Origin: Knoellia sp. Soil729 | GTDB taxonomy: Bacteria > Actinomycetota > Actinomycetes > Actinomycetales > Dermatophilaceae | DNA: 64,000 nt | Direction: 5' to 3' | NCBI RefSeq assembly: GCF_001427985.1 | Contig: NZ_LMSA01000001.1 | Coordinates: forward strand, 625,629-689,628 | Shown: positions 39,034-63,385 of the stretch, piece after piece | Position numbering within the stretch: position 1 is the first letter of the stretch | Layout: each line of letters begins with the position of its first letter | Translations under genes and position numbers: made by a program | The notes under the pieces: model-generated | Database searches by the model: none | Told to the model about the DNA's origin: nothing | The model's input: the letters and a program-made list of their open reading frames with translations, nothing else

Positions 39034-40446
39034 TCAGGTGCGGGTGGCCAACGCTGCCAGCGCAGCCGGGAAGCACTCGGCCGGTGGGGTCACGAGCCCG
39101 GCTCCGACCTGCCCAGTGCCGGCCACCCGCCCCGCCATGCCGGTGTTGATCTGCGGCAGGATCCCGGTCCGCACGACCGACACCACGTCGATGCCCGTCG
39201 GGGTGCCGCGGAAGTCGAGGATCGGCACCTGGAACATCGGGTGCTCCCCCAGCGTGATCTCGTACATCGTCTGCGTCGCCCGCAGCGCGAACGCCACGTC
39301 GCCGCCGACGAACTTGACGATCGCGGGTGCCGCAGCCATCGCGAAGCCACCGATGCCGCCCGTCTCGGTGATGGCCGAGTCGCCGATGTCGGGGTTGGCG
39401 TCATCGGGACCGTAGTCGCCGAGAAAGAGCCCCTCGGGAGTGTTGGCCGGGCCGGTGAACCACTCGTCGCCAGTGCCGGAGACCCGGATCCCGAAGTCGG
39501 TCCCGTTGCGCGCCATGGTCGTCACGAGCGACGAACCGGGTATGCCGTGTGCCGCCATCGTCGCGAGCTTGCAGGCCGGCATACCGAGGTTGAGGAAGAA
39601 GTGCTCGTTGGCGCCGGAGAAGCGCACCGCCTCGGCGATGTCGGTCGAGCTCGCGTCGGCGGTGATCATGCCGGGCAGGAGCTCACGCAGCAGCATGAGC
39701 GAGCCGGCACGGTTGCGGTTGTGGCCCTCGTCGCCCATCTGGAGCATCTGGGCGAGGATCGACTTGATGTCGAACGGACCGGTGCTGCGCACCGACTGCT
39801 GGAGGATCGGGCCGAGCACGTCCGTCATCCAGTGCAGACGGTCCACGACCTCGGGCCCGTAGGCGCCGTAGCGCAGGACCTTGCCCAAACCCTCGTTGAG
39901 CGAGCACCAGGACCACGCGTCGTGGACCTCGTCGCGCAGGCCGTACATCCACATCGACGGCGACACGACGCCCGCCATGGGACCCACTGCGTCGCGGTGG
40001 TGGCATGGCTCGAAGGTGAACGTGCCTGCGGCGAGCGCCTTCTCGGCCTCCTCCGCGTTGTCGGCCAGTCCCTCGAAGAGCACCGCACCGATGAACGCAC
40101 CGCGCAGCGGACCGGAGGCGCGCTCCCAGTCGATGGGCGGACCGGCGTGCAGGAAGGTGCCACGCTCGAGACCGAGGGCGTCCTTGGCCTGCTTGACGTC
40201 GCAGAGCTCGGCGGTCGACGCGGTCATGCGTGCGTATGCCGTGGCGTTGGCTTCGGCGCGGCGCGCGTCGGCCATGACCTTGGCCAGGTCGGCCTCGGTG
40301 CCCTCCATCGGCGGCTGCCAGTCACTCTCGGTGACAGAGACGGCCTGGCCCCGAAGGGCGTCAGCAAAGAGCTGGACTCCCGACGTGGCCACGGACGGCG
40401 ACTCGGCGGACAGCAGGCCGTGCAGTGGCTGCGCAGTTTCGGTCAT
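39034..40446 (-). CDS. allG: DUF1116 protein, AllG-like oxamate carbamoyltransferase subunit
   Basis: A 470-residue YlbE/AllG-family protein (PCHHRDAVGPMAGVVSPSMWMY, GDEGHNRNRAGSLMLLREL, SGANEHFFLNLGMPACK). In E. coli the FdrA-YlbE-YlbF set (AllF, AllG, AllH) was assigned as oxamate carbamoyltransferase, which turns oxalurate plus phosphate into oxamate and carbamoyl phosphate. Here all three genes are adjacent and overlapping (ATGA with fdrA), supporting one complex. The carbamoyl donor could differ in this organism (see findings). It is the last gene of the minus-strand operon. Confidence 0.85.
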   Translation of the reverse strand: MTETAQPLHGLLSAESPSVATSGVQLFADALRGQAVSVTESDWQPPMEGTEADLAKVMADARRAEANATAYARMTASTAELCDVKQAKDALGLERGTFLHAGPPIDWERASGPLRGAFIGAVLFEGLADNAEEAEKALAAGTFTFEPCHHRDAVGPMAGVVSPSMWMYGLRDEVHDAWSWCSLNEGLGKVLRYGAYGPEVVDRLHWMTDVLGPILQQSVRSTGPFDIKSILAQMLQMGDEGHNRNRAGSLMLLRELLPGMITADASSTDIAEAVRFSGANEHFFLNLGMPACKLATMAAHGIPGSSLVTTMARNGTDFGIRVSGTGDEWFTGPANTPEGLFLGDYGPDDANPDIGDSAITETGGIGGFAMAAAPAIVKFVGGDVAFALRATQTMYEITLGEHPMFQVPILDFRGTPTGIDVVSVVRTGILPQINTGMAGRVAGTGQVGAGLVTPPAECFPAALAALATRT

Positions 40447-41921
40447 GACGCGCTCCCGAGGAAGGTGAGGGCGTGCCGGGTGGCATCGCGGTTGGACAGG
40501 AAGACGGACGCGCCCGCCGCGGCGAGCGTCTCGGCAGTGCGGGTCAGGCCCTGGGGGTCGCCCTCGGTGCCGGTGACGGACACGACGACCGGCAGCTCGC
40601 GGCCCTGCTTGGCGTCGCGGATGGCCTCGGCGAGCTCGCCAGCCGGGTCCTGGTGCGCGCCGTAGCCCAGGACGAGGTCGAGCAGGAGAACGCCACAGCT
40701 GGGGTCGGCGGCCTCGGCGGCGATGCGCTCCATGCGCAGGGTCGGGTCGATCATCGGGTGCGCACGGCCCTGGGTCAGGCCGTCGTCACCGAAGTCGATG
40801 ACCACGTGGCCATCGTGCTTGAGGTCGGAGCCGAGGGCGAGGTCGTCACGCAGCGGGATGTTGGAGCGGATGTCGCCCAGGCTCTCGGCAGCCAGGAGCA
40901 TCGCGTCGTCGGCCAGCGTGCCGCCGCAGAAGAGGCCGCGCAGGCTGCCCGTCACCGAGCCCGGCGCGGGATCACCGTCCGCCACCCACTTCGGCCACTC
41001 GGGCACGTCGTGACCCTCGGCCTCGAGCACTGCCTCGAGCGCGGTGGTGAGATCAGGCCGGCCCGCGCCGAGCGTGGCCCAGCGAACCGGCAGACCCAGC
41101 CCTGCGGCATACGACTCGAGGTCCGCGAGGACCTCCTCGTCCGGCGGCTTCGAGACGACGACGATCGAGGTCGTCGCGGGGTCGGCTGCCAGAGCGGCGA
41201 GCGCCTGGCGGGTGGAGCGCCCGCCGACAGCCGTCTTGAGGTCGCGGCCACCGACACCGAGGCAGTGCGAGATCCCGAGCCCGGCGGCGTCGAGGAGGCA
41301 CATGAGCTGCTGGGCGCCGGTCCCGGAGGCGGCGACCATGCCGATCGGGCCCGAGCTGACGACGTTGGCGAAGCCCAAGGCCACTCCCCCGACGCTGGCG
41401 GTGCCGCAGTCGGGGCCCATGACGAGGACGTCGGCCCGCGCGGCGGCGTCCTTGAGCATGACTTCGTCCTCGACGGACACGTTGTCCGAGAACAACATCA
41501 CCGAGGCGCCGGCACCGATGGCGTCGAGCGCCTCGGTGGTGGCATAGCGCCCGGGGACGGAGATGAGGGCGATCTCGGCGCCGCCTGCACGGATCGCTGC
41601 CGCGGTGGTGCGTGGTGCCGGCGCGTCACCGAAGCCACCGCTCGGTGCGGACTTCGCGGACAGGGCGGCCTCGGCAGCAGCAACTCCCGCAGCCACCGCG
41701 TCCTCGTCGGCGGCGCGCACGGCGACGACGAGGTCGTTGGGGCCGGCGCCCTCGGGGACGTCGAAGCCCATCCCGGTGAGCACCTCGACGTTGAGCTCGG
41801 TCGCCATGGCGACCTGGGCGGCCTCGACGCCATCGACGTCAGCGACGGTGCGCGAGACCTGCAGCAGCGTCACGGAGTCGTGGTAGGCGCCTCGGCGCAG
41901 GTCGACGTGGGTGGTACTCAC
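40443..41921 (-). CDS. allF: FdrA/AllF-like subunit (acyl-CoA synthetase fold)
   Basis: A 492-residue protein of the FdrA family, related to succinyl-CoA synthetase but without a classical CoA-ligase context. The N-terminal DLRRGAYHDSVTLLQVSRTVADVDGV is diagnostic, as are MGPDCGTASVGGVALGFANVV, GMVAASGTGAQQLMCLLDAAGLGIS and LRGLFCGGTLADDAM. It is thought to be the phosphate-handling subunit of oxamate carbamoyltransferase. Its ATG overlaps the allH-like stop as ATGA, as does its own stop with the DUF1116 gene. Confidence 0.87.
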   Translation of the reverse strand: MSTTHVDLRRGAYHDSVTLLQVSRTVADVDGVEAAQVAMATELNVEVLTGMGFDVPEGAGPNDLVVAVRAADEDAVAAGVAAAEAALSAKSAPSGGFGDAPAPRTTAAAIRAGGAEIALISVPGRYATTEALDAIGAGASVMLFSDNVSVEDEVMLKDAAARADVLVMGPDCGTASVGGVALGFANVVSSGPIGMVAASGTGAQQLMCLLDAAGLGISHCLGVGGRDLKTAVGGRSTRQALAALAADPATTSIVVVSKPPDEEVLADLESYAAGLGLPVRWATLGAGRPDLTTALEAVLEAEGHDVPEWPKWVADGDPAPGSVTGSLRGLFCGGTLADDAMLLAAESLGDIRSNIPLRDDLALGSDLKHDGHVVIDFGDDGLTQGRAHPMIDPTLRMERIAAEAADPSCGVLLLDLVLGYGAHQDPAGELAEAIRDAKQGRELPVVVSVTGTEGDPQGLTRTAETLAAAGASVFLSNRDATRHALTFLGSAS

Positions 41922-42613: not shown

Positions 42614-42620
42614 CCCTCGA

Positions 42621-42643
42621 ACGCTAGCCAGCCTGACTACAGT
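42621..42643. promoter_or_regulatory. Overlapping divergent leaderless promoters of allHFG and pucR
   Basis: Minus-strand TAGCGT (42621-42626) is 7 bases from the allH-like GTG. Plus-strand TACAGT (42638-42643) is 6 bases from the pucR ATG. The start codons are only 36 bases apart, so PucR bound here could control both. Confidence 0.65.
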
Positions 42644-42649
42644 GGCCGG

Positions 42650-44020: not shown

Positions 44021-44190
44021 CCCGCTTCCTCCTCGCGCTCCGGCGAGTTGCTCCAGACCTGGTCCGCGGGGCTGGCGACCGTGCCACGATGACGCTTACG
44101 ACGCCCGGTGACCGCGGCCACACCGAGTTGCCAACGGTCCGTGCGGGCGACTGTCACAGATTGACGAATGCCCGACGAGGACGGCCCGGT

Positions 44191-44196
44191 TAGCGT
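44191..44196 (+). promoter_or_regulatory. -10 box of the permease operon
   Basis: TAGCGT would start a transcript with a leader of about 60 bases containing GAGGAAGG at 44242-44249, 11 bases before ATG 44261. Nothing else is evident in the 240-base gap after pucR. Confidence 0.45.
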
Positions 44197-44260
44197 CCTC
44201 TCTATCCACGACGGCGTGGCTCCCTGGCTGCCCGTCCACCTGAGGAAGGTCGCACACGAC

Positions 44261-45781
44261 ATGGCTCTCGGACTTGGTTGGAAGCTCAAGGAAGGCGCGC
44301 TCGGGCCCGACGACGTCGTCGCCCCTGACGAGCGGCTGGACTGGGGCCGCACCGTCGGCCTCGGTGCGCAGCACGTCGTCGCGATGTTCGGTGCGACATT
44401 CGTCTTCCCCCTGGTCATGGGGCTCAACCCGCAGCTCGCCATCATGATGAGCGGCATCGCGACGATCGCGTTCCTCCTCATCGTGCAGGGACGGGTGCCG
44501 AGCTACCTCGGCACCTCCGCCGCGTTCGTCGGCGGCGTCGCAGCCATCCGTGCCCAGGGCGGCGACTCCTCCGAGGTCACGGGCGCGATCCTCATCTCCG
44601 GCATCGTCCTCGCCCTCATCGGCCTCGCGATCCACTTCCTCGGGTCGGGCATCCTGCACAAGGTGTTGCCTCCCGTGGTGACCGGCGCCGTCGTCATGCT
44701 CATCGGCTTCAACCTCGCACCGGTGGTCGCCAACATCTACTGGCCCCAGGACCAGTGGGTGGCGCTGCTGACCATGCTCTTCACCATCGTCTGCGCGGTC
44801 GCGTTCAAGGGCTTCATCAGCCGCATCGCGATCTTCCTCGCCCTCATCTTCGGCACCGTGCTGTCGTGGCTCCTCGACAAGGTCGCCGGCCCCATCACCT
44901 CCGTCCTCGGCGGTGCCACCGAGGCCACCGAGCACGTCCGCTGGAACACCTCCGGCATCGGTGACGCCTCGTGGTTCGGCTTCCCGGCCAAGACGATCTT
45001 CAAGGCCGACGGCAGCGAGGTGGCCGGCTGGCACACCCCGAGCTTCTCGACGACCGCGATCCTGCTCGTCCTGCCCGCCGTCATCGCGCTCATCGCCGAG
45101 AACACCGGACACGTCAAGGCCGTTGCCGAGATGACCGGCCACAACCTCGACAAGGACATGGGCCGCGCCATCGCCGCTGACGGTGTCGGCACCATCCTCG
45201 CGTCGTCCGTCGGTGGCTCCCCCACGACGACCTACGCCGAGAACATCGGTGTCATGGCCGCGACCCGCGTCTACTCCACGGCCGCCTACTACGTCGCCGC
45301 CGTCGTCGCGATCCTCTTCGGTCTCTCGCCCAAGTTCGGTGCGCTCGTCGCCTCCGTCCCCGGTGGCGTCCTCGGCGGCATCACCGTCGTCCTCTACGGG
45401 ATGATCGGCCTGCTCGGCGCCAAGATCTGGAAGGAGAACGGGGTCGACTTCGCCAACCCGATCAACCTCGTTCCCGTCGCGGCCGGCATCGTGATCGGCA
45501 TCGGTGACGTCAAGATGAAGTTCAGCGAGGACTTCACCCTCAGCGGCATCGCCCTTGGCACCATTGTCGCCATCGGCGCCTTCCACCTGGCCCGCTCGAT
45601 CGCCCCGGAGGACCTGCGCAACCGCGCTGACGGTCCCGGCGGCCTCGGCGGCCGCGGGGGCACCGCGATCGCCACCGGTGACCGCGTCTACGGTGACGAA
45701 GATGGCATCGACGACCTCTACCAGACCGGCTACCCGGGCGAGCCGGGGACGCGCGACCCCGACCGCGACCGCCGCCTCTGA
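44261..45781 (+). CDS. NCS2-family uracil/xanthine permease
   Basis: A 506-residue transporter with about 12-14 helices: GAQHVVAMFGATFVFPLVMGL, RVPSYLGTSAAFVGGVAA, and GGSPTTTYAENIGVMAATRVYS, the NCS2 signature close to UraA. It imports a nucleobase by proton symport. Which one (uracil, xanthine or uric acid) cannot be told from sequence alone, but it leads an operon of base-degrading enzymes. ATG 44261 (MALGLGWKLKEG) has a ribosome-binding site; ATG 44168 would add 31 atypical residues. Confidence 0.9.
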   Translation: MALGLGWKLKEGALGPDDVVAPDERLDWGRTVGLGAQHVVAMFGATFVFPLVMGLNPQLAIMMSGIATIAFLLIVQGRVPSYLGTSAAFVGGVAAIRAQGGDSSEVTGAILISGIVLALIGLAIHFLGSGILHKVLPPVVTGAVVMLIGFNLAPVVANIYWPQDQWVALLTMLFTIVCAVAFKGFISRIAIFLALIFGTVLSWLLDKVAGPITSVLGGATEATEHVRWNTSGIGDASWFGFPAKTIFKADGSEVAGWHTPSFSTTAILLVLPAVIALIAENTGHVKAVAEMTGHNLDKDMGRAIAADGVGTILASSVGGSPTTTYAENIGVMAATRVYSTAAYYVAAVVAILFGLSPKFGALVASVPGGVLGGITVVLYGMIGLLGAKIWKENGVDFANPINLVPVAAGIVIGIGDVKMKFSEDFTLSGIALGTIVAIGAFHLARSIAPEDLRNRADGPGGLGGRGGTAIATGDRVYGDEDGIDDLYQTGYPGEPGTRDPDRDRRL

Positions 45782-45789
45782 GATTCTCC

Positions 45790-45827: not shown

Positions 45828-45877
45828 CCATTCCCCCAGAACCTCCCCCAGAACTTCCAGCAGGCAGGAGCACCCAG

Positions 45878-46738
45878 GTGAAACCCGCACCGTTCGTGCA
45901 CCACTCCCCGCACACCCTCGACGAAGCCGTCGAGACTCTCCGCGAGGTGGGGCACGACGGCAAGGTCCTCGCCGGGGGGCAGAGCCTGATCCCCGTCCTC
46001 AACATGCGCCTGGCCCAGCCGGCGCACCTCGTCGACATCAACCGGGTCGCCGGGCTGGACACCATCACGGTCACGGATCACTTCGTGCGCGTCGGTGCGA
46101 CCGTGCGCCACGCCGCCCTCCAACGACACGACGACGCGTATGCCGTCCTCCCGGTTCTCCGTCAGGCGCTCAACAACGTGGCCCACCCGGCCATCCGCAA
46201 CCGCGGCACCACCGTGGGCTCCATCGCCCACGCCGACGCCGCCGGCGAGATGCCCTCGATCGCTGTCCTCACCAACGCCGTGATGGAGGTGATCGGGCCC
46301 AAAGGCCGACGTGAGGTCGCTGCCGGCGACTTCTTCGAGGGCCCGCTCCAGACCGTGCTCGAGGCCGACGAGCTCCTCGAGGCGGTGCGCTTCGCCCGCT
46401 TCGGACCGTCGACCCGCACGGCCTTCCTCGAGTCCGCCCGACGCCATGGCGACTACGCCCTCGCCGGCGTGGGGGTGGCCGTGGACGTCGAGGGTGAGGG
46501 CAGTGACGCGGTCGTGCGAGGGGCGCGGGCGGCATACGTCTCCGTCACCGACATCCCCGTCGTCATCGACCTCACCGAAGTCGTTGCCGGACAGCGGATC
46601 TCGTCGAGCTGGGACGGCGTGGACGAGCTCGTCCAGGCCGGTATCGCTCCGGAGGCCGACATCCACGCCAGCAGTGACTACCGCCGAGTCCTCGCCGCAG
46701 AGCTCACCCGCCGAGCCCTCACAGGAGCCGTTTCATGA
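45878..46738 (+). CDS. Molybdenum hydroxylase, FAD subunit (CoxM/XdhB-like)
   Basis: A 286-residue protein of the FAD-binding CoxM family: PHTLDEAVETLREVGHDGKVLAGGQSLIPVLNMRL (FAD motif AGGQSLIP), AHPAIRNRGTTVGS around residues 105-120 and a C-terminal CO dehydrogenase flavoprotein domain. It takes electrons from the iron-sulfur subunit to FAD. GTG 45878 is preceded by GCAGGAG. The next two subunit genes overlap by 4 bases each, indicating stoichiometric synthesis of one complex. Confidence 0.92.
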   Translation: MKPAPFVHHSPHTLDEAVETLREVGHDGKVLAGGQSLIPVLNMRLAQPAHLVDINRVAGLDTITVTDHFVRVGATVRHAALQRHDDAYAVLPVLRQALNNVAHPAIRNRGTTVGSIAHADAAGEMPSIAVLTNAVMEVIGPKGRREVAAGDFFEGPLQTVLEADELLEAVRFARFGPSTRTAFLESARRHGDYALAGVGVAVDVEGEGSDAVVRGARAAYVSVTDIPVVIDLTEVVAGQRISSSWDGVDELVQAGIAPEADIHASSDYRRVLAAELTRRALTGAVS

Positions 46739-47250
46739 CCACCGAAACCAGCAACACCACCGTCGAGGTGACCCTGAACGTCAACGGGGTCGCCCACACC
46801 CGCGAGGTGGAACCCCGCCGGCTGCTGTCGGACTTCCTGCGGCACGACCTGCGCCTGACCGGCACCCACGTCGGCTGCGAGCACGGCGTGTGCGGTACCT
46901 GCACCGTGCTCGTCGACGGCGACCCGATGCGCTCGTGCCTAATGTTCGCCGTGTCAGCCCAGGACGCCCGGATCACCACCGTCGAGGGCCTCGGCACGCA
47001 GGACGACATGGGTCCCGTGCAGCAGGCGTTCGTCGAGTGCCACGGCCTCCAGTGCGGTTTCTGCACACCGGGGTTCGTCACGACGATCACCGCCTTCATC
47101 GAGGAGAACCCCGACCCCACCAGCGAGGAGGCGCGCGAGGCGATCTCGGGCAACCTCTGCCGCTGCACCGGCTACCAGAACATCTGCAAGGCCGTGCTCC
47201 GAGCCGCCGAGATCAAGCGTGAAGGGGCGAACGGGGGCGACGGCGCATGA
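46735..47250 (+). CDS. Molybdenum hydroxylase, 2Fe-2S subunit (CoxS/XdhC-like)
   Basis: A 171-residue protein with both cluster motifs: plant-type ferredoxin GCEHGVCGTCTVLVDG followed by MRSC, and the helical-domain motifs CGFCTPGF and GNLCRCTGYQNI. It relays electrons from the molybdenum centre to FAD. ATGA overlaps join it to both neighbours. The length is typical of CoxS-type subunits. Confidence 0.95.
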   Translation: MTTETSNTTVEVTLNVNGVAHTREVEPRRLLSDFLRHDLRLTGTHVGCEHGVCGTCTVLVDGDPMRSCLMFAVSAQDARITTVEGLGTQDDMGPVQQAFVECHGLQCGFCTPGFVTTITAFIEENPDPTSEEAREAISGNLCRCTGYQNICKAVLRAAEIKREGANGGDGA

Positions 47251-49658
47251 GCACCCGCCAGTTCGGCCAACCCGTCCAGCGCAAGGAGGACCCGCGCCTC
47301 GTCACCGGCAACGGGCGCTACCTCGACGACCTCGGGCAGGACGCCTACGAGGTGGCCTTCGTCCGCAGCCCGCACGCCCACGCGCGCATCACCGACATCG
47401 ACGTCGACGAGGCAGTCGAGATCGACGGCGTCGTCGCGGTCTTCACGCATGAGGACCTCGACGGCCCGGCCGCCGACCGCCTGCCCCTGCTCATCCCCCA
47501 CCCGAGCATCGAGGCCGGTCGCACCGGTTACCCGCTGGCCAAGGACGAGATCAACCACGTCGGTGAGGCCATCGTCATGGTGGTCGCCCGTGACCGCTAC
47601 CTCGCCGAGGACGCGGCGCAGCGCATCGTCGTGACCTACGAGCTGCTGCCGCCCGTCGTCGGGATCGCGAAGTCGCGCGACGGCGAGCTCCTCGTGCACG
47701 ACGACGCCCCCGGCAACGTCGCCGCCCATCTCCTCCAGGAGGTCGGCAACGTCGAGCCTGCCATGGCCGCGGCCCCGCACACCCTGACCCTCGACCTCGA
47801 GATCGAGCGCAGTGCGTGCATGCCGATGGAGGGCAAGGGCGTCCTCGCGCACTGGGACTCCGACGAGCAGCGCATGCGCATCCACTCGTCGACGCAGACC
47901 ACGACCGGTGTGCGCGCTGCTGTCGCCGCCAAGCTCGCCCTGCCTCTGGCGCAGGTCGAGTGCATCGCCCCCGACGTGGGTGGTGGCTTCGGGGTCAAGA
48001 TCATGCACCCGTGGCCCGAGGAGGTCCTCATCCCCTGGGCCTCGCGCAGGCTCAACCACGACGTGAAGTGGACCGAGGACCGGCGGGAGCACTTCACCTC
48101 GAGCGCGCACGAGCGCGGCCAGCTGCAGACCGTCACCGTCGGCTTCGACGACGACGGGCGGCTGCTCGCCCTCGACGTGAAGTTCTGGCACGACAACGGC
48201 GCCTACCTGCCCTACGGCGTCATCGTCCCGATCATCACCGCCACCCAGCTGCTCGGCCCCTACAAGCCGCAGAACTACCGCGTCGAGTTCTGGTCCATGT
48301 ACACCAACACCGTTCTCGTGACGCCCTACCGGGGCGCCGGACGTCCGCAGGGGTGCTACGCCATGGAGCGCACGATGGACGCCATCGCGGCCGAGCTCGG
48401 CCTCGACCGCACCGAGGTCCGCTCCCGCAACTTCATCCAGCCCGAGGAGATGCCCTACGACCAGGGCCTGCTCTTCCAGGACGGGCGCCCGCTAAAGTAC
48501 GACTCCGGTGACTTCCCCGCCTCCCTCGCCAAGCTCAAGGCGCTCGTGGGCTGGGACGACTTCCCGGCATACAAGAAGGAAGCCGAGGCACAGGGACGCA
48601 AGGTCGGACTCGGCATCGGTTGCTACGTCGAGGGCACCGGCGTCGGCCCCTATGAGGGCGGGCACGTGCACGTCGAGACCAGTGGTCGCGTCAACGTCGC
48701 CACGGGCCTCACGACCCAGGGCCAGGGCCACCAGACGATCCTCGCCCAGATCGTCGCCGACGAGCTCGGCGTCTCCATCGACGACGTCCACGTCACCACC
48801 GGTGACACCCGGCGCATGCCGTATGCCGTGGGGACCTTCGCCTCCCGCGGTGCGGTGATGTCGGGCAACGCCGTGGCCCTCGCGGCGCGCGCCGTGCGTG
48901 CCAAGGCCCTGCGGATCGCTGCCGACGCCCTCGAGGTGTCCGAGGACGACCTGCAGATCGAGGACGGGACGATCAGCGTCAAGGGCGCACCCCACGCGTC
49001 GATCGCCCTCTCGACCGTTGCCGTCATGTCCAACCCCCTGCGCTACGCCTTCGACGAGTCCGCCAAGGCCGCCACGCAGTTCGCCGGCACCTACGACCCC
49101 GACAAGCCGCCCATCGCCGACGACGACGAGCCGGGCCTGGAGGGCAAGGACTTCTACTCCCCCACACAGGCGACGTTCGCCAACGGCATGCACGCGGCCA
49201 TCGTCGAGACCGACCCCGTCACCGCCGAGATCAAGATCCTGCGCTACTGCGTCGTCCACGACTGCGGCACCGTGGTCAACCCGATGATCGTCGAGGGGCA
49301 GGTCCACGGCGGCGTGGCCCAGGGCGTCGGAGGCGCGCTCTACGAGCGCATGGCCTACGACGAGAGCGGGCAGCTGCTCAACGCCTCGTTCATGGACTTC
49401 CTCATCCCCTACGCCTCCGAGGTTCCGCACATCGAGACCGACCACCTCGAGACGCCGTCCCCGCTGAACCCCCTGGGGATCAAGGGTGCCGGCGAGGCGG
49501 GCACGATCCCCGTGACCGCCACCATCGCCTCCGCGATCTCGGACGCCGAAGGCTTCGCGATCCGCTCGATGCCCATCAGTCCAGACGAGCTGTGGGACCT
49601 GCGCCGCCAGCGCGCCCTGGCCGCCACCTCCAGCAGCACTCCCGAGGAGCCCGCATGA
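47247..49658 (+). CDS. Molybdenum hydroxylase, molybdopterin subunit (CoxL/XdhA-like)
   Basis: An 803-residue catalytic subunit: FGQPVQRKEDPRLVTGNGRYLDDL, the molybdenum-site segments VGGGFGVKIM and TPYRGAGRPQG, and GIKGAGEAGTIP near the C-terminus with the catalytic Glu. The AYxCSFR loop that marks true CO dehydrogenase is replaced by YRGAGR, so this hydroxylates a carbon, probably a heterocycle, rather than oxidising CO. In this locus xanthine (to urate) or uracil (to barbiturate) are the leading substrates. Confidence 0.92.
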   Translation: MSTRQFGQPVQRKEDPRLVTGNGRYLDDLGQDAYEVAFVRSPHAHARITDIDVDEAVEIDGVVAVFTHEDLDGPAADRLPLLIPHPSIEAGRTGYPLAKDEINHVGEAIVMVVARDRYLAEDAAQRIVVTYELLPPVVGIAKSRDGELLVHDDAPGNVAAHLLQEVGNVEPAMAAAPHTLTLDLEIERSACMPMEGKGVLAHWDSDEQRMRIHSSTQTTTGVRAAVAAKLALPLAQVECIAPDVGGGFGVKIMHPWPEEVLIPWASRRLNHDVKWTEDRREHFTSSAHERGQLQTVTVGFDDDGRLLALDVKFWHDNGAYLPYGVIVPIITATQLLGPYKPQNYRVEFWSMYTNTVLVTPYRGAGRPQGCYAMERTMDAIAAELGLDRTEVRSRNFIQPEEMPYDQGLLFQDGRPLKYDSGDFPASLAKLKALVGWDDFPAYKKEAEAQGRKVGLGIGCYVEGTGVGPYEGGHVHVETSGRVNVATGLTTQGQGHQTILAQIVADELGVSIDDVHVTTGDTRRMPYAVGTFASRGAVMSGNAVALAARAVRAKALRIAADALEVSEDDLQIEDGTISVKGAPHASIALSTVAVMSNPLRYAFDESAKAATQFAGTYDPDKPPIADDDEPGLEGKDFYSPTQATFANGMHAAIVETDPVTAEIKILRYCVVHDCGTVVNPMIVEGQVHGGVAQGVGGALYERMAYDESGQLLNASFMDFLIPYASEVPHIETDHLETPSPLNPLGIKGAGEAGTIPVTATIASAISDAEGFAIRSMPISPDELWDLRRQRALAATSSSTPEEPA

Positions 49659-50317
49659 ACATCTCCGGCACCGCCACCATGGCTGCCTCCCCCGACCAGG
49701 TGTGGGCAGCCGTCCACGACCCAGCCGTTCTGGCCCGGTGCATCCCCGGGTGCCAGTCGCTACGGGAGCTCTCCCCCGGCAGCTACGCCATGACCGTCAT
49801 GGCCGGAGTGGCAGCCATCAAGGGCTCCTACGACGGCCAGGTGGCGATCTCGGACGTCACCGAGCCCAGCGCGTTCGTCATGAAGGCCGAGGGCGCTGGC
49901 GCACCGGGCACCATCGCCACGACGGTCGACGTGAACCTCACTCCTGCTGATGGCGGCGGGACGTCGATCACCTATGAGGCGGACGCCCAGGTCGGCGGCC
50001 CCATCGGCGGTGTCGGTCAGCGCATGCTCGCCGGGGTCGCCCGCAAGATGGCCGGCCAGATGTTCACGTCCCTCGACGCCGACATCGCCGGGAAGCGCCC
50101 TGCCGCGCCCGAACCGGCAGCTGCCGGCGTGTCGCGTCCTGGAGAAGGGGAATCGGCGAGGTCGGGACAGCTGGCGGGCGGAGGGCAGACCGCTTCGTAT
50201 GCTGGTGGGGCGCCCTCGTCCGCATGCGGACCGGGTCTCGTGCCCAGCGCCCTCCTCGGTGCCGGGATCGCTCTGGCCGGCGTGCTCGTCGGCTGGCTGA
50301 TTGGAGGTCGTCGCTGA
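49655..50317 (+). CDS. CoxG-like SRPBCC protein, membrane-anchored
   Basis: A 220-residue protein: residues 1-150 form the CoxG/SRPBCC domain (MNISGTATMAASPDQVWAAV, CIPGCQSLRELSPGSYAMTV, DAQVGGPIGGVGQRML). A variable linker and a C-terminal helix (about 196-215) with RR end follow. CoxG proteins tether molybdenum hydroxylases to the membrane or help their maturation. ATG 49655 overlaps the large-subunit stop by 4 bases. The linker is low-complexity. Confidence 0.86.
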   Translation: MNISGTATMAASPDQVWAAVHDPAVLARCIPGCQSLRELSPGSYAMTVMAGVAAIKGSYDGQVAISDVTEPSAFVMKAEGAGAPGTIATTVDVNLTPADGGGTSITYEADAQVGGPIGGVGQRMLAGVARKMAGQMFTSLDADIAGKRPAAPEPAAAGVSRPGEGESARSGQLAGGGQTASYAGGAPSSACGPGLVPSALLGAGIALAGVLVGWLIGGRR

Positions 50318-56183: not shown

Positions 56184-56184
56184 G

Positions 56185-57661: not shown

Positions 57662-57780
57662 GACTGCTCCAGGGGGGAGGTGCCGCGAGCTCATCGTCGG
57701 GCTCGCTGTGCATCTGCTCTTCGGAGCCGACGATGCAGGTGGATTGCCTGCCTCGAGGCCGCCGGTGGCACCATGAGCCG

Positions 57781-58257: not shown

Positions 58258-58404
58258 CACCTCTCGTATGCCGGCCGCCCACCTGTCGTCCCCGCATCAC
58301 ACCTGGTCGCACACACGGCATACGGCATGGGTTTGGCAGAAGGTGACACCGTGGGCCGCTCGACTTGCCATGACCTGACCGATCCCCTGACCCGTCCCGC
58401 TCCC

Positions 58405-58410
58405 TAGGCT
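58405..58410 (+). promoter_or_regulatory. Leaderless -10 box of the CoA-transferase operon
   Basis: TAGGCT followed by 6 bases and ATG 58417. The 159-base gap after guaD also contains two CGGCATAC octamers in opposite orientations (58266-58273 and 58316-58323). Confidence 0.6.
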
Positions 58411-58416
58411 CGACGC

Positions 58417-59592
58417 ATGACCGGCCCCCTCCAGGACATCACCGTCGTTGACCTCTCCCGAGCCCTCGCTGGCCCACACGCCGCGATGATGCTGGGAGAC
58501 ATGGGCGCTCGCGTCATCAAGGTCGAGAGCCCGGGCAAGGGTGACGACACCCGCGGCTGGGGGCCTCCGTTCGTCGGGCCAGAGGACGACCCCATCTCGA
58601 CCTACTTCCTCAGCGCCAACCGCAACAAGGAGTCGATCACCCTCGACCTCAAGGCCGACGACGGCCGGGACGTCCTCACCAGGCTCGTGCAGCGCGCCGA
58701 CGTCCTCATCGAGAACTTCCGGCCCGGCGTCATGGACCGACTGGGCTTCTCCAACGATGCCCTCCACGAGCTCAACCCGCGCCTCGTCATCCTCTCGATC
58801 AGCGGTTTCGGCCACGACGGACCGCAGGGCGGCCGCGCCGGCTACGACCAGATCGCGCAGGGCGAGGCGGGACTCATGTCGGTCACGGGTCCTGGTCCGG
58901 ACAACCCGCAGCGCGTGGGGGTGCCCATCGGCGACCTCCTCGCGGGCATGTACGGCGCCTATGGCGTCGTCGCCGCCCTGCACGAGCGCAACACCACCGG
59001 CACGGGCCGGGTCGTGCGGACCTCGCTGCTGGCCGCGGTCGTCGGGTCGCACGCCATGCACGGCACGGCTTACACCGTTGCCGGCCACGTCGGGCACGCG
59101 CAGGGCAACCAGCACCCGAGCATCTCCCCCTACGGCCTCTTCCACTGTGCCGACGGGGACGTGCAGGTCGCCTGCGGCTCGGAGTCCCTCTGGGTCAAGC
59201 TCGCCGAGGGCTTCGGCATCAACCCAGCAGCCGAGGGCATGGCCACCAACCGCGAACGCATTGCCAACCGCGAGCGGGTTGCCGAGACGGTCAACGAGGC
59301 CTTCAGCCAGTGGCGCCTCGACGACCTGCTCCCACGCCTCGCCGAGCTCGGCGTCCCGTCGGGCGAGGTGCGCACCATCGACCGCGTCTATGACTGGGAC
59401 CAGACCCGCTCCCAGGGGCTCGTCCTCGACGTCGACCACCCGGTGCTCGGCTCGATCGAGATCCCCGGTCCGCCGATCCGCTTCGACGACAATGCTTTTG
59501 CCGGCGGTCGTGAGACCCACCTGGCGCCCCCGCTGCTCGGGCAGCACAACGACAGCGTCCGCGCCTGGCTCGCCGAGGAGGACCCGAAGTGA
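58417..59592 (+). CDS. Class III CoA-transferase (CaiB/BaiF family)
   Basis: A 391-residue protein: ITVVDLSRALAGPHAAMMLGDMGARVIKVE, FRPGVMDRLGF, and VPIGDLLAGMYGAYGV with the acyl-accepting Asp173. These enzymes move CoA between carboxylates such as formate/oxalate or carnitine derivatives. GTGA overlap with the following AccDA fusion implies that they act in sequence: CoA activation, then (de)carboxylation. Malonate or oxalate as substrate is an inference from the locus. Confidence 0.88.
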   Translation: MTGPLQDITVVDLSRALAGPHAAMMLGDMGARVIKVESPGKGDDTRGWGPPFVGPEDDPISTYFLSANRNKESITLDLKADDGRDVLTRLVQRADVLIENFRPGVMDRLGFSNDALHELNPRLVILSISGFGHDGPQGGRAGYDQIAQGEAGLMSVTGPGPDNPQRVGVPIGDLLAGMYGAYGVVAALHERNTTGTGRVVRTSLLAAVVGSHAMHGTAYTVAGHVGHAQGNQHPSISPYGLFHCADGDVQVACGSESLWVKLAEGFGINPAAEGMATNRERIANRERVAETVNEAFSQWRLDDLLPRLAELGVPSGEVRTIDRVYDWDQTRSQGLVLDVDHPVLGSIEIPGPPIRFDDNAFAGGRETHLAPPLLGQHNDSVRAWLAEEDPK

Positions 59593-61103
59593 GTCCGAAG
59601 CCGGTCCGCCTGACGTCGAGCCAGCTCATCTCCGCGGTCCTCGACGACGACACCTGGCAGAGCTGGGACGAGACCCCTCTCACCGTGGCCGAGGAGGGCA
59701 GCACCTATGCCGCCGAGCTGGCCGCCGCCGCCGAGAAGTCGGGGGTCGACGAGTCAATCGTCACGGGCGAGGGCCGCATCGGTGGTCACCGGGTCGCGGT
59801 CATCGCCGGGGAGTTCACCTTCCTCGCAGGGAGCATCGGTGTCGCCGCCGCCGAGCGCATCGTCCTCGCCTTCGAACGCGCCACTCGCGAGCGCCTGCCG
59901 CTGTTCGCGGCCCCGGCATCGGGTGGCACGCGCATGCAGGAGGGCACGCCGGCCTTCGTGACGATGGTCAAGATCTCCGCCGCCGTCGCGGCCTACAAGC
60001 AGGAGCACCTGCCCTACATCACCTACCTGCGCCACCCGACCACCGGCGGGGTCTTCGCCTCGTGGGGCTCGCTCGGCCACGTCACCGTCGGCGAACCGGG
60101 CGCGACCATCGGCTTCCTCGGGGCCCGGGTCTTCGAGGCCCTCTATGGGCAGCCGTTCCCGGAGGACGTCCAGACCGCCGAGAACCTCTTTGCCCACGGC
60201 CTGCTCGATGCGGTCCTCCCGGTCGAGCTCCTCACCGCGACGGCGGTGCGCTTCCTCGACCTCGTGCTCGCTCCTCACGACTCCAGCCCCGCACCCGAGG
60301 TCCCGCGCGAGCCCCTGCCCGACATCCCCGCCTGGGACTCGATCACCCGCTCACGCAACCCCGACAGGCCGGGAGTGCGCGCCCTCCTCAAGCTCGGCGC
60401 CACCGACGTCCTGCCCCTGTTCGGCACTGGTGCCGGCGAGTGGGACCGCTCCCTCTTCCTCGCGCTGGCCCGGTTCGAGGGCACGCCGTGCGTCGTGCTC
60501 GGCCAGGACCGTCGTGGCGAGCAGACCGAGGCGCCGCTCGGACCCTCCGGGCTGCGGGTCGCCCGCCGCGGGATGAAGCTCGCGACCGAGCTCAACCTGC
60601 CCCTCGTGAGCATCATCGACACGGCCGGTGCAGCGCTGTCCAAGGAGGCCGAGGAGGGCGGCATGGCCGGCGAGATCGCCCGCTGCCTGTCCGAGCTCGT
60701 CGTCCTCGAGGTGCCCACCGTGTGCGTCCTGCTCGGCCAGGGCACCGGCGGCGGCGCCCTCGCCCTCATGCCCGCCGACCGGGTCATCAGCGCGCAGCAC
60801 TCGTGGCTCTCTCCGCTGCCACCCGAAGGCGCGTCAGCGATCCTGTACCGCACTCCCGACCGGGCGCCCGAGCTCGCCGAGCGCCAGCGCGTCCGCTCCC
60901 TCGACCTGCTCCGGGACGGGATCATCGACCGCATCGTGGCCGAGCACCCCGACGCAGCCCAGGAGCCGGAGGCGTTCTGCCAGCGCATGGGCCAGGCGAT
61001 CCGGCACGAGCTCGCGGACCTCGGCGACCAGGATCGGGTGCAGCGGCTCGGAGACCGACACGCGCGCTACCGCCGTCTCGGGACCGAGCCGGTGCGTCAC
61101 TGA
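59589..61103 (+). CDS. AccD-AccA fused carboxyltransferase-like protein
   Basis: A 504-residue crotonase-fold protein. The N-terminal half resembles AccD/MdcD (FAAPASGGTRMQEGTPAFVTM, TTGGVFASWGSLGHVTVGEPGATIGFLGARV), and the C-terminal half AccA/MdcE (LVSIIDTAGAALSKEAEEGGMAGEIA, GQGTGGGALALMPADRV). There is no zinc-finger and no biotin carrier or carboxylase gene nearby. It could be a carboxyltransferase using a distant biotin subunit, or act as a malonyl-CoA decarboxylase-like partner of the CoA-transferase. GTG overlaps the previous stop. Confidence 0.78.
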   Translation: MSPKPVRLTSSQLISAVLDDDTWQSWDETPLTVAEEGSTYAAELAAAAEKSGVDESIVTGEGRIGGHRVAVIAGEFTFLAGSIGVAAAERIVLAFERATRERLPLFAAPASGGTRMQEGTPAFVTMVKISAAVAAYKQEHLPYITYLRHPTTGGVFASWGSLGHVTVGEPGATIGFLGARVFEALYGQPFPEDVQTAENLFAHGLLDAVLPVELLTATAVRFLDLVLAPHDSSPAPEVPREPLPDIPAWDSITRSRNPDRPGVRALLKLGATDVLPLFGTGAGEWDRSLFLALARFEGTPCVVLGQDRRGEQTEAPLGPSGLRVARRGMKLATELNLPLVSIIDTAGAALSKEAEEGGMAGEIARCLSELVVLEVPTVCVLLGQGTGGGALALMPADRVISAQHSWLSPLPPEGASAILYRTPDRAPELAERQRVRSLDLLRDGIIDRIVAEHPDAAQEPEAFCQRMGQAIRHELADLGDQDRVQRLGDRHARYRRLGTEPVRH

Positions 61104-61122
61104 GTCCGGCAAGGCGTCACAA

Positions 61123-61151
61123 CTGACAAAGGCAGGCGTGTTGCCTGTCAG
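61123..61151 (+). terminator. Imperfect hairpin after the AccDA gene
   Basis: CTGACA-AA-GGCA pairs with TGCC-TGTCAG around a 7-base loop, with a 2-base bulge, 20 bases after the stop. It is a weak terminator candidate. Confidence 0.4.
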
Positions 61152-61183
61152 GTGATGCCAACGCCGGGCCCCAGCGCTCTCCA

Positions 61184-61235
61184 TAGGCTCGCCGCAACGG
61201 CATACAACGAAGGTGTGCCGACCCGACCAGGAGGG
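61184..61235 (+). promoter_or_regulatory. -10 box and ribosome-binding site of the carbamate kinase gene
   Basis: TAGGCT (61184-61189) would begin a leader of about 45 bases that ends in AGGAGGG (61229-61235), 6 bases before GTG 61242. One CGGCATAC octamer (61198-61205) falls at the transcript start. Confidence 0.55.
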
Positions 61236-61241
61236 AAGCGC

Positions 61242-62183
61242 GTGCGAGTTCTCGTTGCACTCGGAGGGAACGCCATGACCTCGTCGGAGGGGTCGGCGCA
61301 CCCGGCCGACCAGGTGCGCGCGATCACCGAGGCCATGGAGCACGTGGCCGAGCTTGTCGCCGCAGGGCACGACGTCGTCCTCACCCACGGCAACGGTCCG
61401 CAGGTGGGCAACCTGCTCGTCAAGAACGAGCTCGCGGCGCTGGTCGTGCCGCCCGTACCGCTCGACTGGTGCGGCGCCCAGACCCAGGGGACGATCGGCT
61501 TCACGATGCTCGACGCCCTCGAGCCGGCACTGGCCCGGCGCAGCGTGCAGCGTCCCGTGGCCGCGCTGGTGACCCGCACGCTCGTCGACGCCGACGACCC
61601 GCACTTCCGGAAGCCGACGAAGCCGATCGGGCGCTACCTCAGCGCCGACGAGGCGCAGCCGATGATCGACCACGGCCAGACCTGGGAGGACCGCGGCGAC
61701 AAGGGATGGCGCCGCGTCGTGGCCTCGCCCGAGCCCAAGGAGATCCTCGACCTCCCGGCCATCCGGGCCCTGGTCGAGACCGGCCACGTCGTTGTCGCCG
61801 CCGGCGGTGGCGGCATCCCGGTCGTGCGGAAGGCCGACGGCAGCCTGCACGGCGTCGAGGCCGTCATCGACAAGGACCTCTCGGCCGCGCTGCTCGCGCA
61901 GGAGCTCGGGTGCGACATCCTCATCATCGCGACCGACGTCGACGCGGCCATGGTCGACTACGGCACTGCGCAGCAGCGCCCGCTCGGCGTCACCTCGCTC
62001 GCCGAGATGCAGGAGCACGCCGCCGAGGGCCAGTTCGCGTCGGGGTCCATGGGCCCCAAGGTCAACGCCGCGATGGCCTTCGCCGAGTCGGGTGGCCGCA
62101 GCATCATCACCTCGCTCGCCCACATCACCGACGCCGTCGAGCGCGAGTTCGGCACCGTCATCGACCCCAGCCCCATGAACTAA
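61242..62183 (+). CDS. arcC: Carbamate kinase
   Basis: A 313-residue amino acid kinase: VRVLVALGGNAMTSSEGSA, VLTHGNGPQVGNLLVKNE, VVAAGGGGIPVV, GVEAVIDKDLSAALLA and GSMGPKVNAAMAF. It makes ATP from ADP and carbamoyl phosphate, releasing ammonia and CO2. No arginine deiminase or ornithine carbamoyltransferase is nearby, so carbamoyl phosphate should come from the AllFGH-like complex about 20 kb away. GTG 61242 is preceded by AGGAGGG; the earlier ATG at 61152 is rejected. Confidence 0.94.
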   Translation: MRVLVALGGNAMTSSEGSAHPADQVRAITEAMEHVAELVAAGHDVVLTHGNGPQVGNLLVKNELAALVVPPVPLDWCGAQTQGTIGFTMLDALEPALARRSVQRPVAALVTRTLVDADDPHFRKPTKPIGRYLSADEAQPMIDHGQTWEDRGDKGWRRVVASPEPKEILDLPAIRALVETGHVVVAAGGGGIPVVRKADGSLHGVEAVIDKDLSAALLAQELGCDILIIATDVDAAMVDYGTAQQRPLGVTSLAEMQEHAAEGQFASGSMGPKVNAAMAFAESGGRSIITSLAHITDAVEREFGTVIDPSPMN

Positions 62184-62236
62184 CACAACCTGATCCCACC
62201 GCCTGACAACGAAGTCCCACACTGAAAGGTCCAGCC

Positions 62237-63385
62237 GTGCCAGAAGCCATTGAGGTCCGCAAGGTCCCGCTCCACAGCGTCTCCGACGCCTCCGAGCTGG
62301 GAAAGCTCATCGACGACGGGGTCATGGAGGCCAGCCGCGTCATCGCCATCATCGGCAAGACCGAGGGCAACGGTGGCGTCAACGACTACACCCGCATCAT
62401 CGCCGACCGGGCCTTCCGTGAGGTGCTCATCGAGAAGGGCGCACCCGCGGACCAGGTCAAGCAGGTCCCGATCGTCTGGTCGGGCGGCACGGACGGCATC
62501 ATCAGCCCCCACGCCACCATCTTCGCGACCGTGCCGGCCGAGAAGGCCGAGCAGACCGACGAGCCGCGGCTCACTGTCGGTTTCGCCATGAGCGAGGCGA
62601 TCCTGCCCGAGGAGATCGGCTACGTCGGGATGATCACCAAGGTCGCCGACGCAGTGAAGGTCGCCATGGAGCGGGCCGGCATCACCGACCCCAAGGACGT
62701 GCACTACGTCCAGACCAAGACCCCGCTGCTGACGATCCACACGATCCGCGACGCCGAGTCGCGCGGCAAGAAGGTCTGGACCCACCACACCCACGAGTCG
62801 ATGGACCTCTCCAACGGCACCACCGGCCTCGGCATCGCCGTCGCCCTCGGCGAGATCGAGATGCCGACCGACGCGGACGTCATGGAGAACCGCGACCTGT
62901 ACTCGTCGGTGGCCTCCTGCTCCTCGGGCGTCGAGCTCGACCAGGCGCAGGTCGTCGTCGTCGGCAACGCGAAGGGTGTCGGCGGTCGCTACCGCATCGG
63001 CCACTCGGTCATGCGCGACGCCCTCGACGCGGACGGTATCTGGTCGGCGATCAAGGACGCCGGGCTGGAGCTGCCCGAGCGCCCGCACACGAGCGACATC
63101 AAGGGCCGGCTCGTCAACGTCTTCCTCAAGTGCGAGGTCAGCCAGGACGGCGAGGTCCGCGGTCGCCGCAACGCGATGCTCGACGACTCCGACGTGCACT
63201 GGCACCGCCAGATCAAGTCGGCTGTCGGTGGCGTCACGGCCTCGGTGACGGGTGACCCGGCCGTGTTCGTGTCGGTCTCGGCCGCCCACCAGGGCCCCGA
63301 CGGTGGTGGCCCCGTGGCCGCGATCGTCGACCTCGGCGAGGGCGAGCCCACGGGTTACGCCGCTCCGGGAGCCCCGTCGGCCTGA
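62237..63385 (+). CDS. Barbiturase/cyanuric acid hydrolase family amidohydrolase
   Basis: A 382-residue protein of the AtzD/barbiturase family, built of three repeats. The paired Lys and Ser residues are visible: K41 (IIGKTEGNG), K161 (VQTKTPLL), K298 (VFLKCEVS), and S82 (WSGGTDG), S229/S230 (SCSSGVE), S348 (VSAAHQGP). Barbiturase opens barbiturate to ureidomalonate; cyanuric acid hydrolase opens cyanurate. No other s-triazine gene is present, so barbiturase fits better. GTG 62237 is preceded by GAAAGG. It follows carbamate kinase by 53 bases. Confidence 0.88.

What the first reader, a model, noticed from the sequence alone, without database searches (positions are those of the whole stretch)
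39034..63385. Possible energy-conserving oxidative pyrimidine pathway: barbiturase coupled to an AllFGH-type carbamoyltransferase and carbamate kinase
Seen: one 24-kb locus has a uracil/xanthine-type permease, a molybdenum hydroxylase, a barbiturase-family enzyme, the FdrA/DUF1116/DUF2877 trio, carbamate kinase, a C-N hydrolase, a class III CoA-transferase and an AccD-AccA fusion under PucR. Known: barbiturase gives ureidomalonate, normally hydrolysed to urea and malonate; AllFGH splits oxalurate into oxamate and carbamoyl phosphate. Ureidomalonate is the one-carbon-longer analogue of oxalurate. Inference: uracil to barbiturate (Mo hydroxylase) to ureidomalonate (barbiturase) to malonamate plus carbamoyl phosphate (AllFGH-like); ATP from carbamate kinase; malonamate to malonate (C-N hydrolase); malonyl-CoA to acetyl-CoA (CoA-transferase, AccDA). 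This would replace urea loss with ATP gain. I know of no description of it.
Basis: partly seen in the sequence, partly recalled or inferred. Interest (0 to 1): 0.85.

Follow-up and report, generated by a model that had tools for sequence, protein, structure and literature searches.

The report
Likely ATP-yielding barbiturate breakdown cluster
A soil bacterium carries a gene set that probably breaks down the RNA base uracil through barbiturate and, instead of discarding part of it as urea, turns that part into carbamoyl phosphate and then ATP; the same gene partnership recurs in many related bacteria, but no enzyme has been assayed.

Summary
The 39-63 kb locus encodes an AllF/AllG/AllH trio, PucR, an NCS2 permease, a molybdenum hydroxylase, a C-N hydrolase, a class III CoA-transferase, an AccD-AccA fusion, carbamate kinase (CK) and a barbiturase (83% identical to the R. 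erythropolis enzyme, with its specificity residues). The barbiturase-trio link is not chance: AllG is in 19 of 19 signature-bearing genomes of a phylum sample, 49 of 49 named relatives searched and 73 of 76 (by identity) of an order sample, usually within 60 kb, sometimes in one compact operon. AllG of barbiturase genomes is one clade, apart from both E. coli paralogues. Three barbiturase genomes lacking AllG also lack CK. The window genome lacks uricase, a curated-cut-off allantoinase and urease. Separately, cyanuric acid hydrolases on proteobacterial plasmids sit with the same trio and CK; their product, 1-carboxybiuret, is the aza-analogue of ureidomalonate. Best reading: the trio phosphorolyses ureidomalonate to malonamate and carbamoyl phosphate, and CK makes ATP. 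No biochemistry was done; amidases in many loci leave a hydrolytic rival open; the CoA-transferase/AccDA tail is accessory, urease is mixed, HyuAB unexplained. The searched papers do not describe it.

The parts
39034..40446 (-). AllG-like subunit (DUF1116) of the predicted carbamoyltransferase
   Evidence: PF06545 317.8 bits; barbiturase-linked AllG clade; 47% id to E. coli YlbE/AllG, 45% to YahG; structure relative 3clq
40443..41921 (-). AllF/FdrA-like subunit
   Evidence: Ligase_CoA; E. coli FdrA 3dmy 228 bits
41918..42622 (-). AllH-like subunit (DUF2877); start codon uncertain
   Evidence: PF11392 59 bits
42650..44020 (+). PucR-family regulator, divergent; start uncertain
   Evidence: HTH_30 and GGDEF_2
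44168..45781 (+). NCS2 nucleobase permease, closest to RutG/uracil type
   Evidence: TIGR03616 RutG 359 bits, below its cut-off of 758.65
45878..46738 (+). Mo hydroxylase FAD subunit
   Evidence: FAD_binding_5
46735..47250 (+). Mo hydroxylase 2Fe-2S subunit
   Evidence: Fer2_2
47247..49658 (+). Mo hydroxylase large subunit; proposed uracil-to-barbiturate enzyme
   Evidence: NF040766 1524.5 bits; PYRGAGR motif in its translation, no CODH cysteine motif
49655..50317 (+). CoxG-like maturation protein
   Evidence: PF06240
50317..51249 (+). C-N hydrolase; proposed malonamate amidase
   Evidence: PF00795 163.6 bits; best PDB relatives include Nit-type hydrolases
52108..54216 (+). HyuA-like subunit (ATP-dependent class by recall), role unknown
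   Evidence: Hydantoinase_A; PDB N-methylhydantoinase 7hk5 492 bits
54213..56183 (+). HyuB-like subunit, role unknown
   Evidence: Hydantoinase_B 448 bits
57733..58257 (+). cytidine-deaminase-fold protein, possibly feeding cytosine
   Evidence: PF00383 78 bits
58417..59592 (+). class III CoA-transferase; proposed malonate activation (accessory)
   Evidence: PF02515 390 bits; PDB relatives include succinate-hydroxymethylglutarate CoA-transferase
59589..61103 (+). AccD-AccA fusion; the AccD part aligns only from model position 55; proposed malonyl-CoA decarboxylation (accessory)
   Evidence: TIGR00515, NF041504; PDB relatives are mostly ACC-type carboxyltransferases
61239..62183 (+). carbamate kinase; start uncertain
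   Evidence: TIGR00746 348 bits, just below its cut-off of 358.25; NF009007 314 bits, above its cut-off of 266 (ORF from 61152)
62237..63385 (+). barbiturase
   Evidence: 83.4% id to 5hwe; signature NHKVS

Best explanation
The locus encodes an oxidative pyrimidine catabolic pathway with a phosphorolytic branch. Uracil enters through the NCS2 permease and is hydroxylated to barbiturate by the Mo enzyme (inferred from context). Barbiturase opens the ring to ureidomalonate (orthology to a characterised enzyme). The AllF/G/H-type complex moves the terminal carbamoyl group of this acylurea onto phosphate, giving malonamate and carbamoyl phosphate (inferred: AllFGH of E. coli is assigned this reaction with oxalurate). 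Carbamate kinase makes ATP, NH3 and CO2 (orthology). Malonamate is deamidated to malonate by the C-N hydrolase, or by an AS-family amidase in other lineages (inferred). Malonate is optionally activated and decarboxylated to acetyl-CoA by the CoA-transferase and AccDA (weak inference).
For: Barbiturase identity and specificity residues. Co-occurrence: 19 of 19 signature genomes of the phylum sample have AllG; 49 of 49 named relatives searched; 73 of 76 of an order sample, classed by identity. On the same contig, 14 of 14 (phylum) and 56 of 60 (order) pairs lie within 60 kb (5 of 19 and 13 of 73 pairs are on different contigs and not counted). Compact operons such as BAR-NCS2-CK-AllH-AllF-AllG-MoMSL (G009) and BAR-AllH-AllF-AllG-MoMSL (G304). 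CK about 1 kb upstream of BAR in 78 of 80 named loci, read from the listing. AllG of barbiturase genomes is one clade, support 99/97. CK in 36 of 37 barbiturase+AllG+ genomes versus 0 of 3 AllG- ones. No uricase, curated-cut-off allantoinase or urease alpha match in the window genome. Parallel cyanuric-acid-hydrolase modules with the same trio and CK, probably assembled separately by AllG tree.
Against: No assay of ureidomalonate with any AllFGH complex was found. AS-family amidases sit in 18 of 80 named loci and elsewhere and might be the ureidomalonase known from R. erythropolis; that organism's own locus was not reached (best match 88%). 31 of 50 other AllG-positive genomes have a urease alpha match, in G472, G564, G663, G670 and G686 only 11-15 kb from barbiturase, so urea may also be formed. 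HyuAB has no place in the scheme, and three genomes have Mo enzyme + HyuAB + AllF/AllG without barbiturase. G279 has trio and barbiturase but no CK. Three genomes have barbiturase without AllG.
Confidence: 0.72

Rival explanations
1. Ureidomalonate is hydrolysed by a conventional ureidomalonase (the C-N hydrolase here, an AS-family amidase elsewhere), giving malonate and urea or malonamate with NH3 and CO2; the trio and CK serve another ureide such as oxalurate.
For: Ureidomalonase activity is on record (PMC3758960 passages citing Soong 2001). Amidases lie in many barbiturase loci, including the three without AllG. The C-N hydrolase's best NCBIfam match is N-carbamoylputrescine amidase (110 bits, cut-off 410), a ureido-group hydrolase.
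Against: Does not explain why the trio and CK follow barbiturase so closely (19 of 19, 49 of 49, 73 of 76) and are missing together. 7 of 19 phylum genomes lack both a uricase match and a curated allantoinase, leaving no evident purine source of oxalurate. No amidase match in the window.
Confidence: 0.14
2. The same logic serves another cyclic ureide: HyuAB (not barbiturase) opens the main ring, for example hydantoin oxidised by the Mo enzyme to parabanate and opened to oxalurate, which the trio splits as in E. coli.
For: HyuA in 51 and HyuB in 59 of 80 named loci; HyuA is closest to N-methylhydantoinase. Three genomes have Mo enzyme, HyuAB and AllF/AllG without PF09663, and their AllG lies in the sister clade.
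Against: No HyuAB was detected in the compact operon of G304 (20 kb of a 25.8-kb contig read). Barbiturase sits next to CK and, in many genomes, to AllHFG. The AllG of barbiturase genomes is its own clade.
Confidence: 0.1
3. The genes are unrelated neighbours brought together by chance.
For: The window cluster is spread over 24 kb with unrelated genes (PIN, NmrA) between.
Against: Co-occurrence p about 3e-15 (not corrected for relatedness), operons conserved across several families, and recurrence in Proteobacteria with cyanuric acid hydrolase.
Confidence: 0.01

Closest known systems
E. coli oxamic transcarbamylase AllFGH with carbamate kinase AllK (PMC11326118, passages read)
   Same: Three homologous subunits plus a carbamate kinase; acylurea substrate with a carboxyl group; carbamoyl phosphate product
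   Different: Separate AllG clade at 47% identity; coupled to barbiturase and a Mo hydroxylase, not to allantoin genes; predicted substrate one CH2 longer. The E. coli activity was measured in reverse, from oxamate and carbamoyl phosphate
Oxidative pyrimidine pathway with barbiturase and ureidomalonase: pyrimidine to barbiturate, then malonate + urea (PMC3758960, passages read)
   Same: Barbiturase at 83% identity to the R. erythropolis structure entry; uracil/barbiturate logic
   Different: Described end is hydrolytic, releasing urea; here a phosphorolytic carbamoyltransferase and CK are predicted instead
Cyanuric acid pathway (AtzD/TrzD, then AtzE or BiuH, then AtzF; partly recalled)
   Same: Homologous ring-opening enzyme; ring-opened product is an acylurea
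   Different: Barbiturase residues NHKVS, not RTRGG. Plasmid modules pairing AtzD/TrzD with AllF/AllG/AllH and CK may be the cyanuric acid counterpart of what is proposed here
allFGHK beside triuret/biuret genes in nitrifiers (PMC12625717, passages read)
   Same: Trio and CK beside acylurea genes
   Different: Authors propose oxalurate as the substrate and report no cyanuric acid hydrolase in their MAGs. Their comammox contigs lack trtB (carboxybiuret decarboxylase), which would fit carboxybiuret as the trio's substrate (my inference)

Membership tests
Barbiturase (EC 3.5.2.1) | Barbiturase-type specificity residues N/H/K/V/S(A) instead of R/T/R/G/G | tested here: met
   Window NHKVS; 5hwe NHKVS; cyanuric acid hydrolases 5t13 and 6dhj RTRGG
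Barbiturase (EC 3.5.2.1) | Conserved Ser-Lys catalytic dyad | tested here: met
   Lys161 and the SSVASCSSG region align with 5hwe and the cyanuric acid hydrolases
Barbiturase (EC 3.5.2.1) | Hydrolyses barbiturate | not testable with these tools
   Inferred from 83.4% identity to 5hwe
AllFGH oxamic transcarbamylase | AllF, AllG and AllH encoded together with a carbamate kinase | tested here: met
   in the window CK is 19 kb from the trio, in other genomes in the same operon
AllFGH oxamic transcarbamylase | Phylogenetic membership with E. coli AllG | tested here: not met
   AllG of barbiturase genomes is a separate clade, support 99/97; E. coli AllG itself is a long branch
AllFGH oxamic transcarbamylase | Allantoin degradation genes present to supply oxalurate | tested here: not met
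   No uricase match and no allantoinase over the cut-off in the window genome; other allantoin genes were not tested
AllFGH oxamic transcarbamylase | Acts on oxalurate | not testable with these tools
   Needs purified complex
Catabolic carbamate kinase | Curated ArcC model scores | tested here: inconclusive
   TIGR00746 348 of 358.25 bits (below); NF009007 314 of 266 (above)
Aerobic Mo/Cu CO dehydrogenase | Cysteine-bearing (A/S)YRCS(F/L)R active-site motif (as given in PMC13240472) | tested here: not met
   Window has PYRGAGR; of 42 large-subunit matches in relatives (second Mo enzymes included) 37 PYRGAGR, 4 AYRGAGR, 1 without the motif, although NF040766 calls the family CODH
Biotin-independent malonate decarboxylase (MdcDE) | AccDA closest to MdcD/MdcE | tested here: not met
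   Scores far higher with ACC carboxyltransferase models (accD 175, MdcD 40 bits)

The most novel reading that the evidence does not exclude
AllF/AllG/AllH complexes are a general family of acylurea phosphorolases, HOOC-X-CO-NH-CO-NH2 + Pi to HOOC-X-CO-NH2 + carbamoyl phosphate, with X absent (oxalurate, allantoin branch), CH2 (ureidomalonate, barbiturase branch, this window) or NH (1-carboxybiuret giving allophanate, cyanuric acid hydrolase branch on plasmids and perhaps in nitrifiers). They have been recruited several times beside ring-opening enzymes so that nitrogen heterocycles yield ATP instead of urea or biuret.
Probability: 0.5. Interest if true: 0.88.

Novelty: new variant of a known kind. 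Interest (0 to 1): 0.78.

Why it matters
The oxidative pyrimidine pathway has been described as ending in urea and malonate. If right, a widespread actinobacterial form conserves energy (one ATP per ring, before any cost of HyuAB) and recovers the carbamoyl nitrogen without urease. It would give the AllFGH family a second substrate, supply candidate genes for the uracil-oxidising Mo enzyme (now named CO dehydrogenase by NCBI's model) and for malonamate deamidation, and explain why some cyanuric acid hydrolases on plasmids travel with carbamate kinase. All of it is testable with purified proteins.

Tried and rejected
Rejected: that the AtzD-family protein is a cyanuric acid hydrolase (signature and identity). 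That the trio belongs to a purine/allantoin pathway in this genome. That AS amidases specifically replace the trio: they are in the three AllG-less genomes, but related ones also occur in 18 of 80 named loci that carry barbiturase, so they are not a clean replacement. That urease absence explains the trio in general: 31 of 50 other AllG-positive genomes have a urease alpha match, a few of them weak. RutA: 0 of 19 genomes over the cut-off, so no Rut pathway was found; the reductive pathway was not tested. That the large Mo subunit is a CO dehydrogenase.

Led nowhere: R. erythropolis itself was not in the sample. Two chromosome-sized records in the plasmid collection carry no gene table there and were read with my own gene calls. 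In one, Nonomuraea, 41 kb around barbiturase show no AllG or CK; AllG is there 42 kb away, while the best 15 rows of a CK search did not list it, so its CK is unsettled. A literature search joining form II CoxL with uracil/barbiturate listed only crystal-chemistry papers.

Limits: Genomes in the samples overlap (G050 and G415 look identical; G522 and L136 too) and relatives are not independent, so p values overstate. One search covered 49 of the 80 named loci (50 asked, one not held; 30 not asked). One search covered 80 of the 104 genomes (fragmentary matches, G392 and the tail of the list left out). In 'true CK' means over 290 bits (all others were under 48); only 8 of 57 genomes pass the model's own cut-off, and G750 (CK present, AllG not searched) was left out of the count. 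Counts are lower bounds because flanks were 10 kb or less. '31 of 50' is my count after setting aside G576, G619 and G621.


Full report
WHAT IS THERE. The window lies at G000:C1:625629-689628 of a 3.6-Mb genome; by barbiturase its closest named relatives are Knoellia, Janibacter and other Dermatophilaceae/Intrasporangiaceae. The cluster also holds HyuA/HyuB, an NmrA-like protein, a PIN ORF and a deaminase, and lies between what read as folD and purH (names recalled from the translations).

THE RING OPENER IS A BARBITURASE. It is 83.4% identical over 368 columns to the structure entry named barbiturase (5hwe; the R. erythropolis source is recalled) and 46-47% to cyanuric acid hydrolases 5t13 and 6dhj. 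PMC3758960 (passages read) lists five residues that differ between the two activities: R/T/R/G/G in AtzD, N/H/K/V/S(A) in barbiturase. The window has NHKVS. Of the 184 rows aligned (180 locus matches, some duplicates, plus the window and three structures), 171 carry NHK with V or I, then S, A or G; 7 carry RTRGG; and 6, from G181, G192 and G297, carry neither (the exact letters there depend on the alignment; compare).

BARBITURASE PREDICTS THE TRIO. Phylum sample of 346 genomes: PF09663 in 24, PF06545 in 43, both in 19. All 19 with the barbiturase signature have AllG; the five others (two RTRGG, three with neither signature) have none. Of 49 named genomes with a close barbiturase that could be searched, 49 have AllG. 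In an order sample of 397 genomes, 104 matched the 5hwe sequence; of 80 of these searched for AllG, 74 have it. Setting aside four matches at 37-40% identity (one of which, G628, has a distant AllG), that is 73 of 76. Two more barbiturase records, Embleya and Nonomuraea, also hold AllG. Where both genes lie on one contig, 14 of 14 (phylum) and 56 of 60 (order) pairs are within 60 kb, median about 8 kb; 5 of 19 and 13 of 73 pairs are on different contigs. Several genomes show a compact operon: barbiturase, NCS2, CK, AllH, AllF, AllG, Mo hydroxylase, CoxG (G009), or barbiturase, AllH, AllF, AllG, Mo hydroxylase (G304). CK lies about 1 kb upstream of barbiturase in 78 of 80 named loci (listing).

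A DEDICATED CLADE. In a maximum-likelihood tree of 60 AllG proteins the 48 rows from barbiturase genomes (one genome, G279, twice) form one group (99/97; one change against a shuffled mean of 11.2). Window AllG is 47% and 45% identical to the E. coli paralogues YlbE/AllG and YahG. 75 positions are conserved across the barbiturase rows (98% or more) and both E. coli proteins, and 14 are conserved in the barbiturase clade but different in both E. coli proteins. An active enzyme with shifted specificity would look like this, but it is not proof.

NATURAL ABSENCES. Three barbiturase genomes lack AllG: G576, G619, G621. All three also lack a true carbamate kinase, whereas 36 of 37 barbiturase+AllG+ genomes tested have one (the exception, G279, has an asparaginase-family gene in the operon). 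In the same call CK is in 7 of 7 AllG+ genomes without barbiturase and in 3 of 9 genomes with another AtzD-family protein. Fisher p for the barbiturase genomes is 4e-4, but G576 and G619 look like close relatives, so this is perhaps two events. The three carry AS-family amidases in the locus. Related amidases occur in 18 of 80 named loci, mostly Nocardioides, 17 of them with CK in the flank, mostly in the place where the window has its C-N hydrolase. Of 28 complete MoL-HyuA intervals, 19 hold an amidase, 2 the C-N hydrolase, 7 neither and none both. The simplest reading is that amidase and C-N hydrolase do the same job, malonamate deamidation, but a ureidomalonase role is not excluded.

NOT AN ALLANTOIN LOCUS. 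The window genome has no uricase match, no allantoinase over the curated cut-off (best 240.8 of 357.85, on another contig) and no urease alpha match. Of the 19 phylum genomes, 7 lack both uricase and a curated allantoinase; in the 12 where an allantoinase over the cut-off exists it lies on another contig or at least 178 kb from barbiturase. Against a simple story, urease alpha is matched in 5 of the 19 (one weakly) and in 31 of 50 other AllG-positive genomes.

THE PARALLEL CASE. Searching plasmids with AllG led to an operon AtzD-like, NCS2, DUF2877, FdrA, DUF1116, CK on K. aerogenes and C. freundii plasmids. 47 of 49 matching records hold at least 80% of it; all 49 match at 95% identity or more, so this is one lineage. 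A second type has FdrA, DUF1116, a protein 100% identical over the aligned part to the cyanuric acid hydrolase structure 5t13, and CK, in K. quasipneumoniae and the atrazine degrader Aminobacter sp. SR38; PMC8407692 (passages) places trzD on that SR38 contig. In SR38 a DUF2877 gene lies 6 kb downstream of CK. The ring openers of both types carry RTRGG. Allophanate hydrolase atzF lies beside the module in K. quasipneumoniae and about 6 kb away in K. aerogenes; it was not seen in the SR38 stretch read. The AllG proteins of the two plasmid types fall in different places and outside the barbiturase clade, so the pairing of AtzD-family enzyme, trio and CK probably arose at least three times. Chemically (my reasoning), ureidomalonate, 1-carboxybiuret and oxalurate are all carboxylated acylureas; 1-carboxybiuret is ureidomalonate with CH2 replaced by NH. 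This convergence is the strongest argument that the trio acts on the ring-opened product.

WHAT IS SHOWN AND WHAT IS INFERRED. Shown by sequence: gene identities, barbiturase signature, co-occurrence, linkage, clade, co-absence, parallel modules. Inferred: uracil as substrate, ureidomalonate as the trio's substrate, malonamate as product, the C-N hydrolase's substrate, and the malonate-to-acetyl-CoA tail. The CoA-transferase resembles dicarboxylate CoA-transferases among others, and AccDA resembles ACC carboxyltransferase, but near barbiturase they are in 46 and 20 of 80 named loci.

LITERATURE. Searches for barbiturase + FdrA and ureidomalonate + carbamoyl phosphate found 0 papers each. Broader searches (the last listing 15 of 19 papers) listed no paper whose title or abstract start joins barbiturase or cyanuric acid hydrolase to this trio; beyond the listings I read only passages, of PMC3758960, PMC4051656, PMC7662398, PMC11326118, PMC12625717, PMC3961730, PMC8407692 and PMC13240472, in an open-licence library. 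PMC12625717 reports allFGHK beside triuret/biuret genes in nitrifiers and reads it as oxalurate degradation.

Noticed in passing
47247-49658: NCBIfam NF040766 names this large subunit 'aerobic carbon-monoxide dehydrogenase' (1524 bits), yet it has PYRGAGR and lacks the cysteine motif, and the same family sits in other barbiturase loci. It is a candidate uracil hydroxylase; PMC13240472 (passages) says form II activity is unresolved.
   Followed up: partly
52108-56183: HyuA/HyuB accompany many barbiturase loci (51 and 59 of 80) with no role in the proposed pathway; in G157, G135 and G032 they occur with the Mo enzyme and AllF/AllG but without any PF09663 match, so they may open a ring themselves.
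   Followed up: partly
36777-63986: The cluster lies between folD and purH; the PurH C-terminal part is within 10 kb of barbiturase in 36 of 80 named loci.
   Followed up: partly
L065:3251-11748: G304 has the shortest operon, barbiturase-AllH-AllF-AllG-Mo hydroxylase, and its Mo large subunit is of another, xanthine-dehydrogenase-like family.
   Followed up: partly
L255:6731-14372: A cyanuric acid hydrolase-NCS2-AllH-AllF-AllG-CK operon, with IS26 elements nearby in the records read, is spread nearly identically over 47 plasmid records of several genera.
   Followed up: partly
L063:9042-10016: G279, the one barbiturase+AllG genome tested without carbamate kinase, has an asparaginase-family gene in the operon.
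   Followed up: no
L084:7028-12027: G181 has a NF040766-type Mo enzyme beside an AtzD-family protein with neither known specificity signature and an amidase; G192 and G297 have the same kind of AtzD-family protein beside an amidase. Substrate unknown.
   Followed up: no
G472, G564, G663, G670, G686: Urease alpha genes lie 11-15 kb from barbiturase in five genomes that also carry the trio.
   Followed up: no
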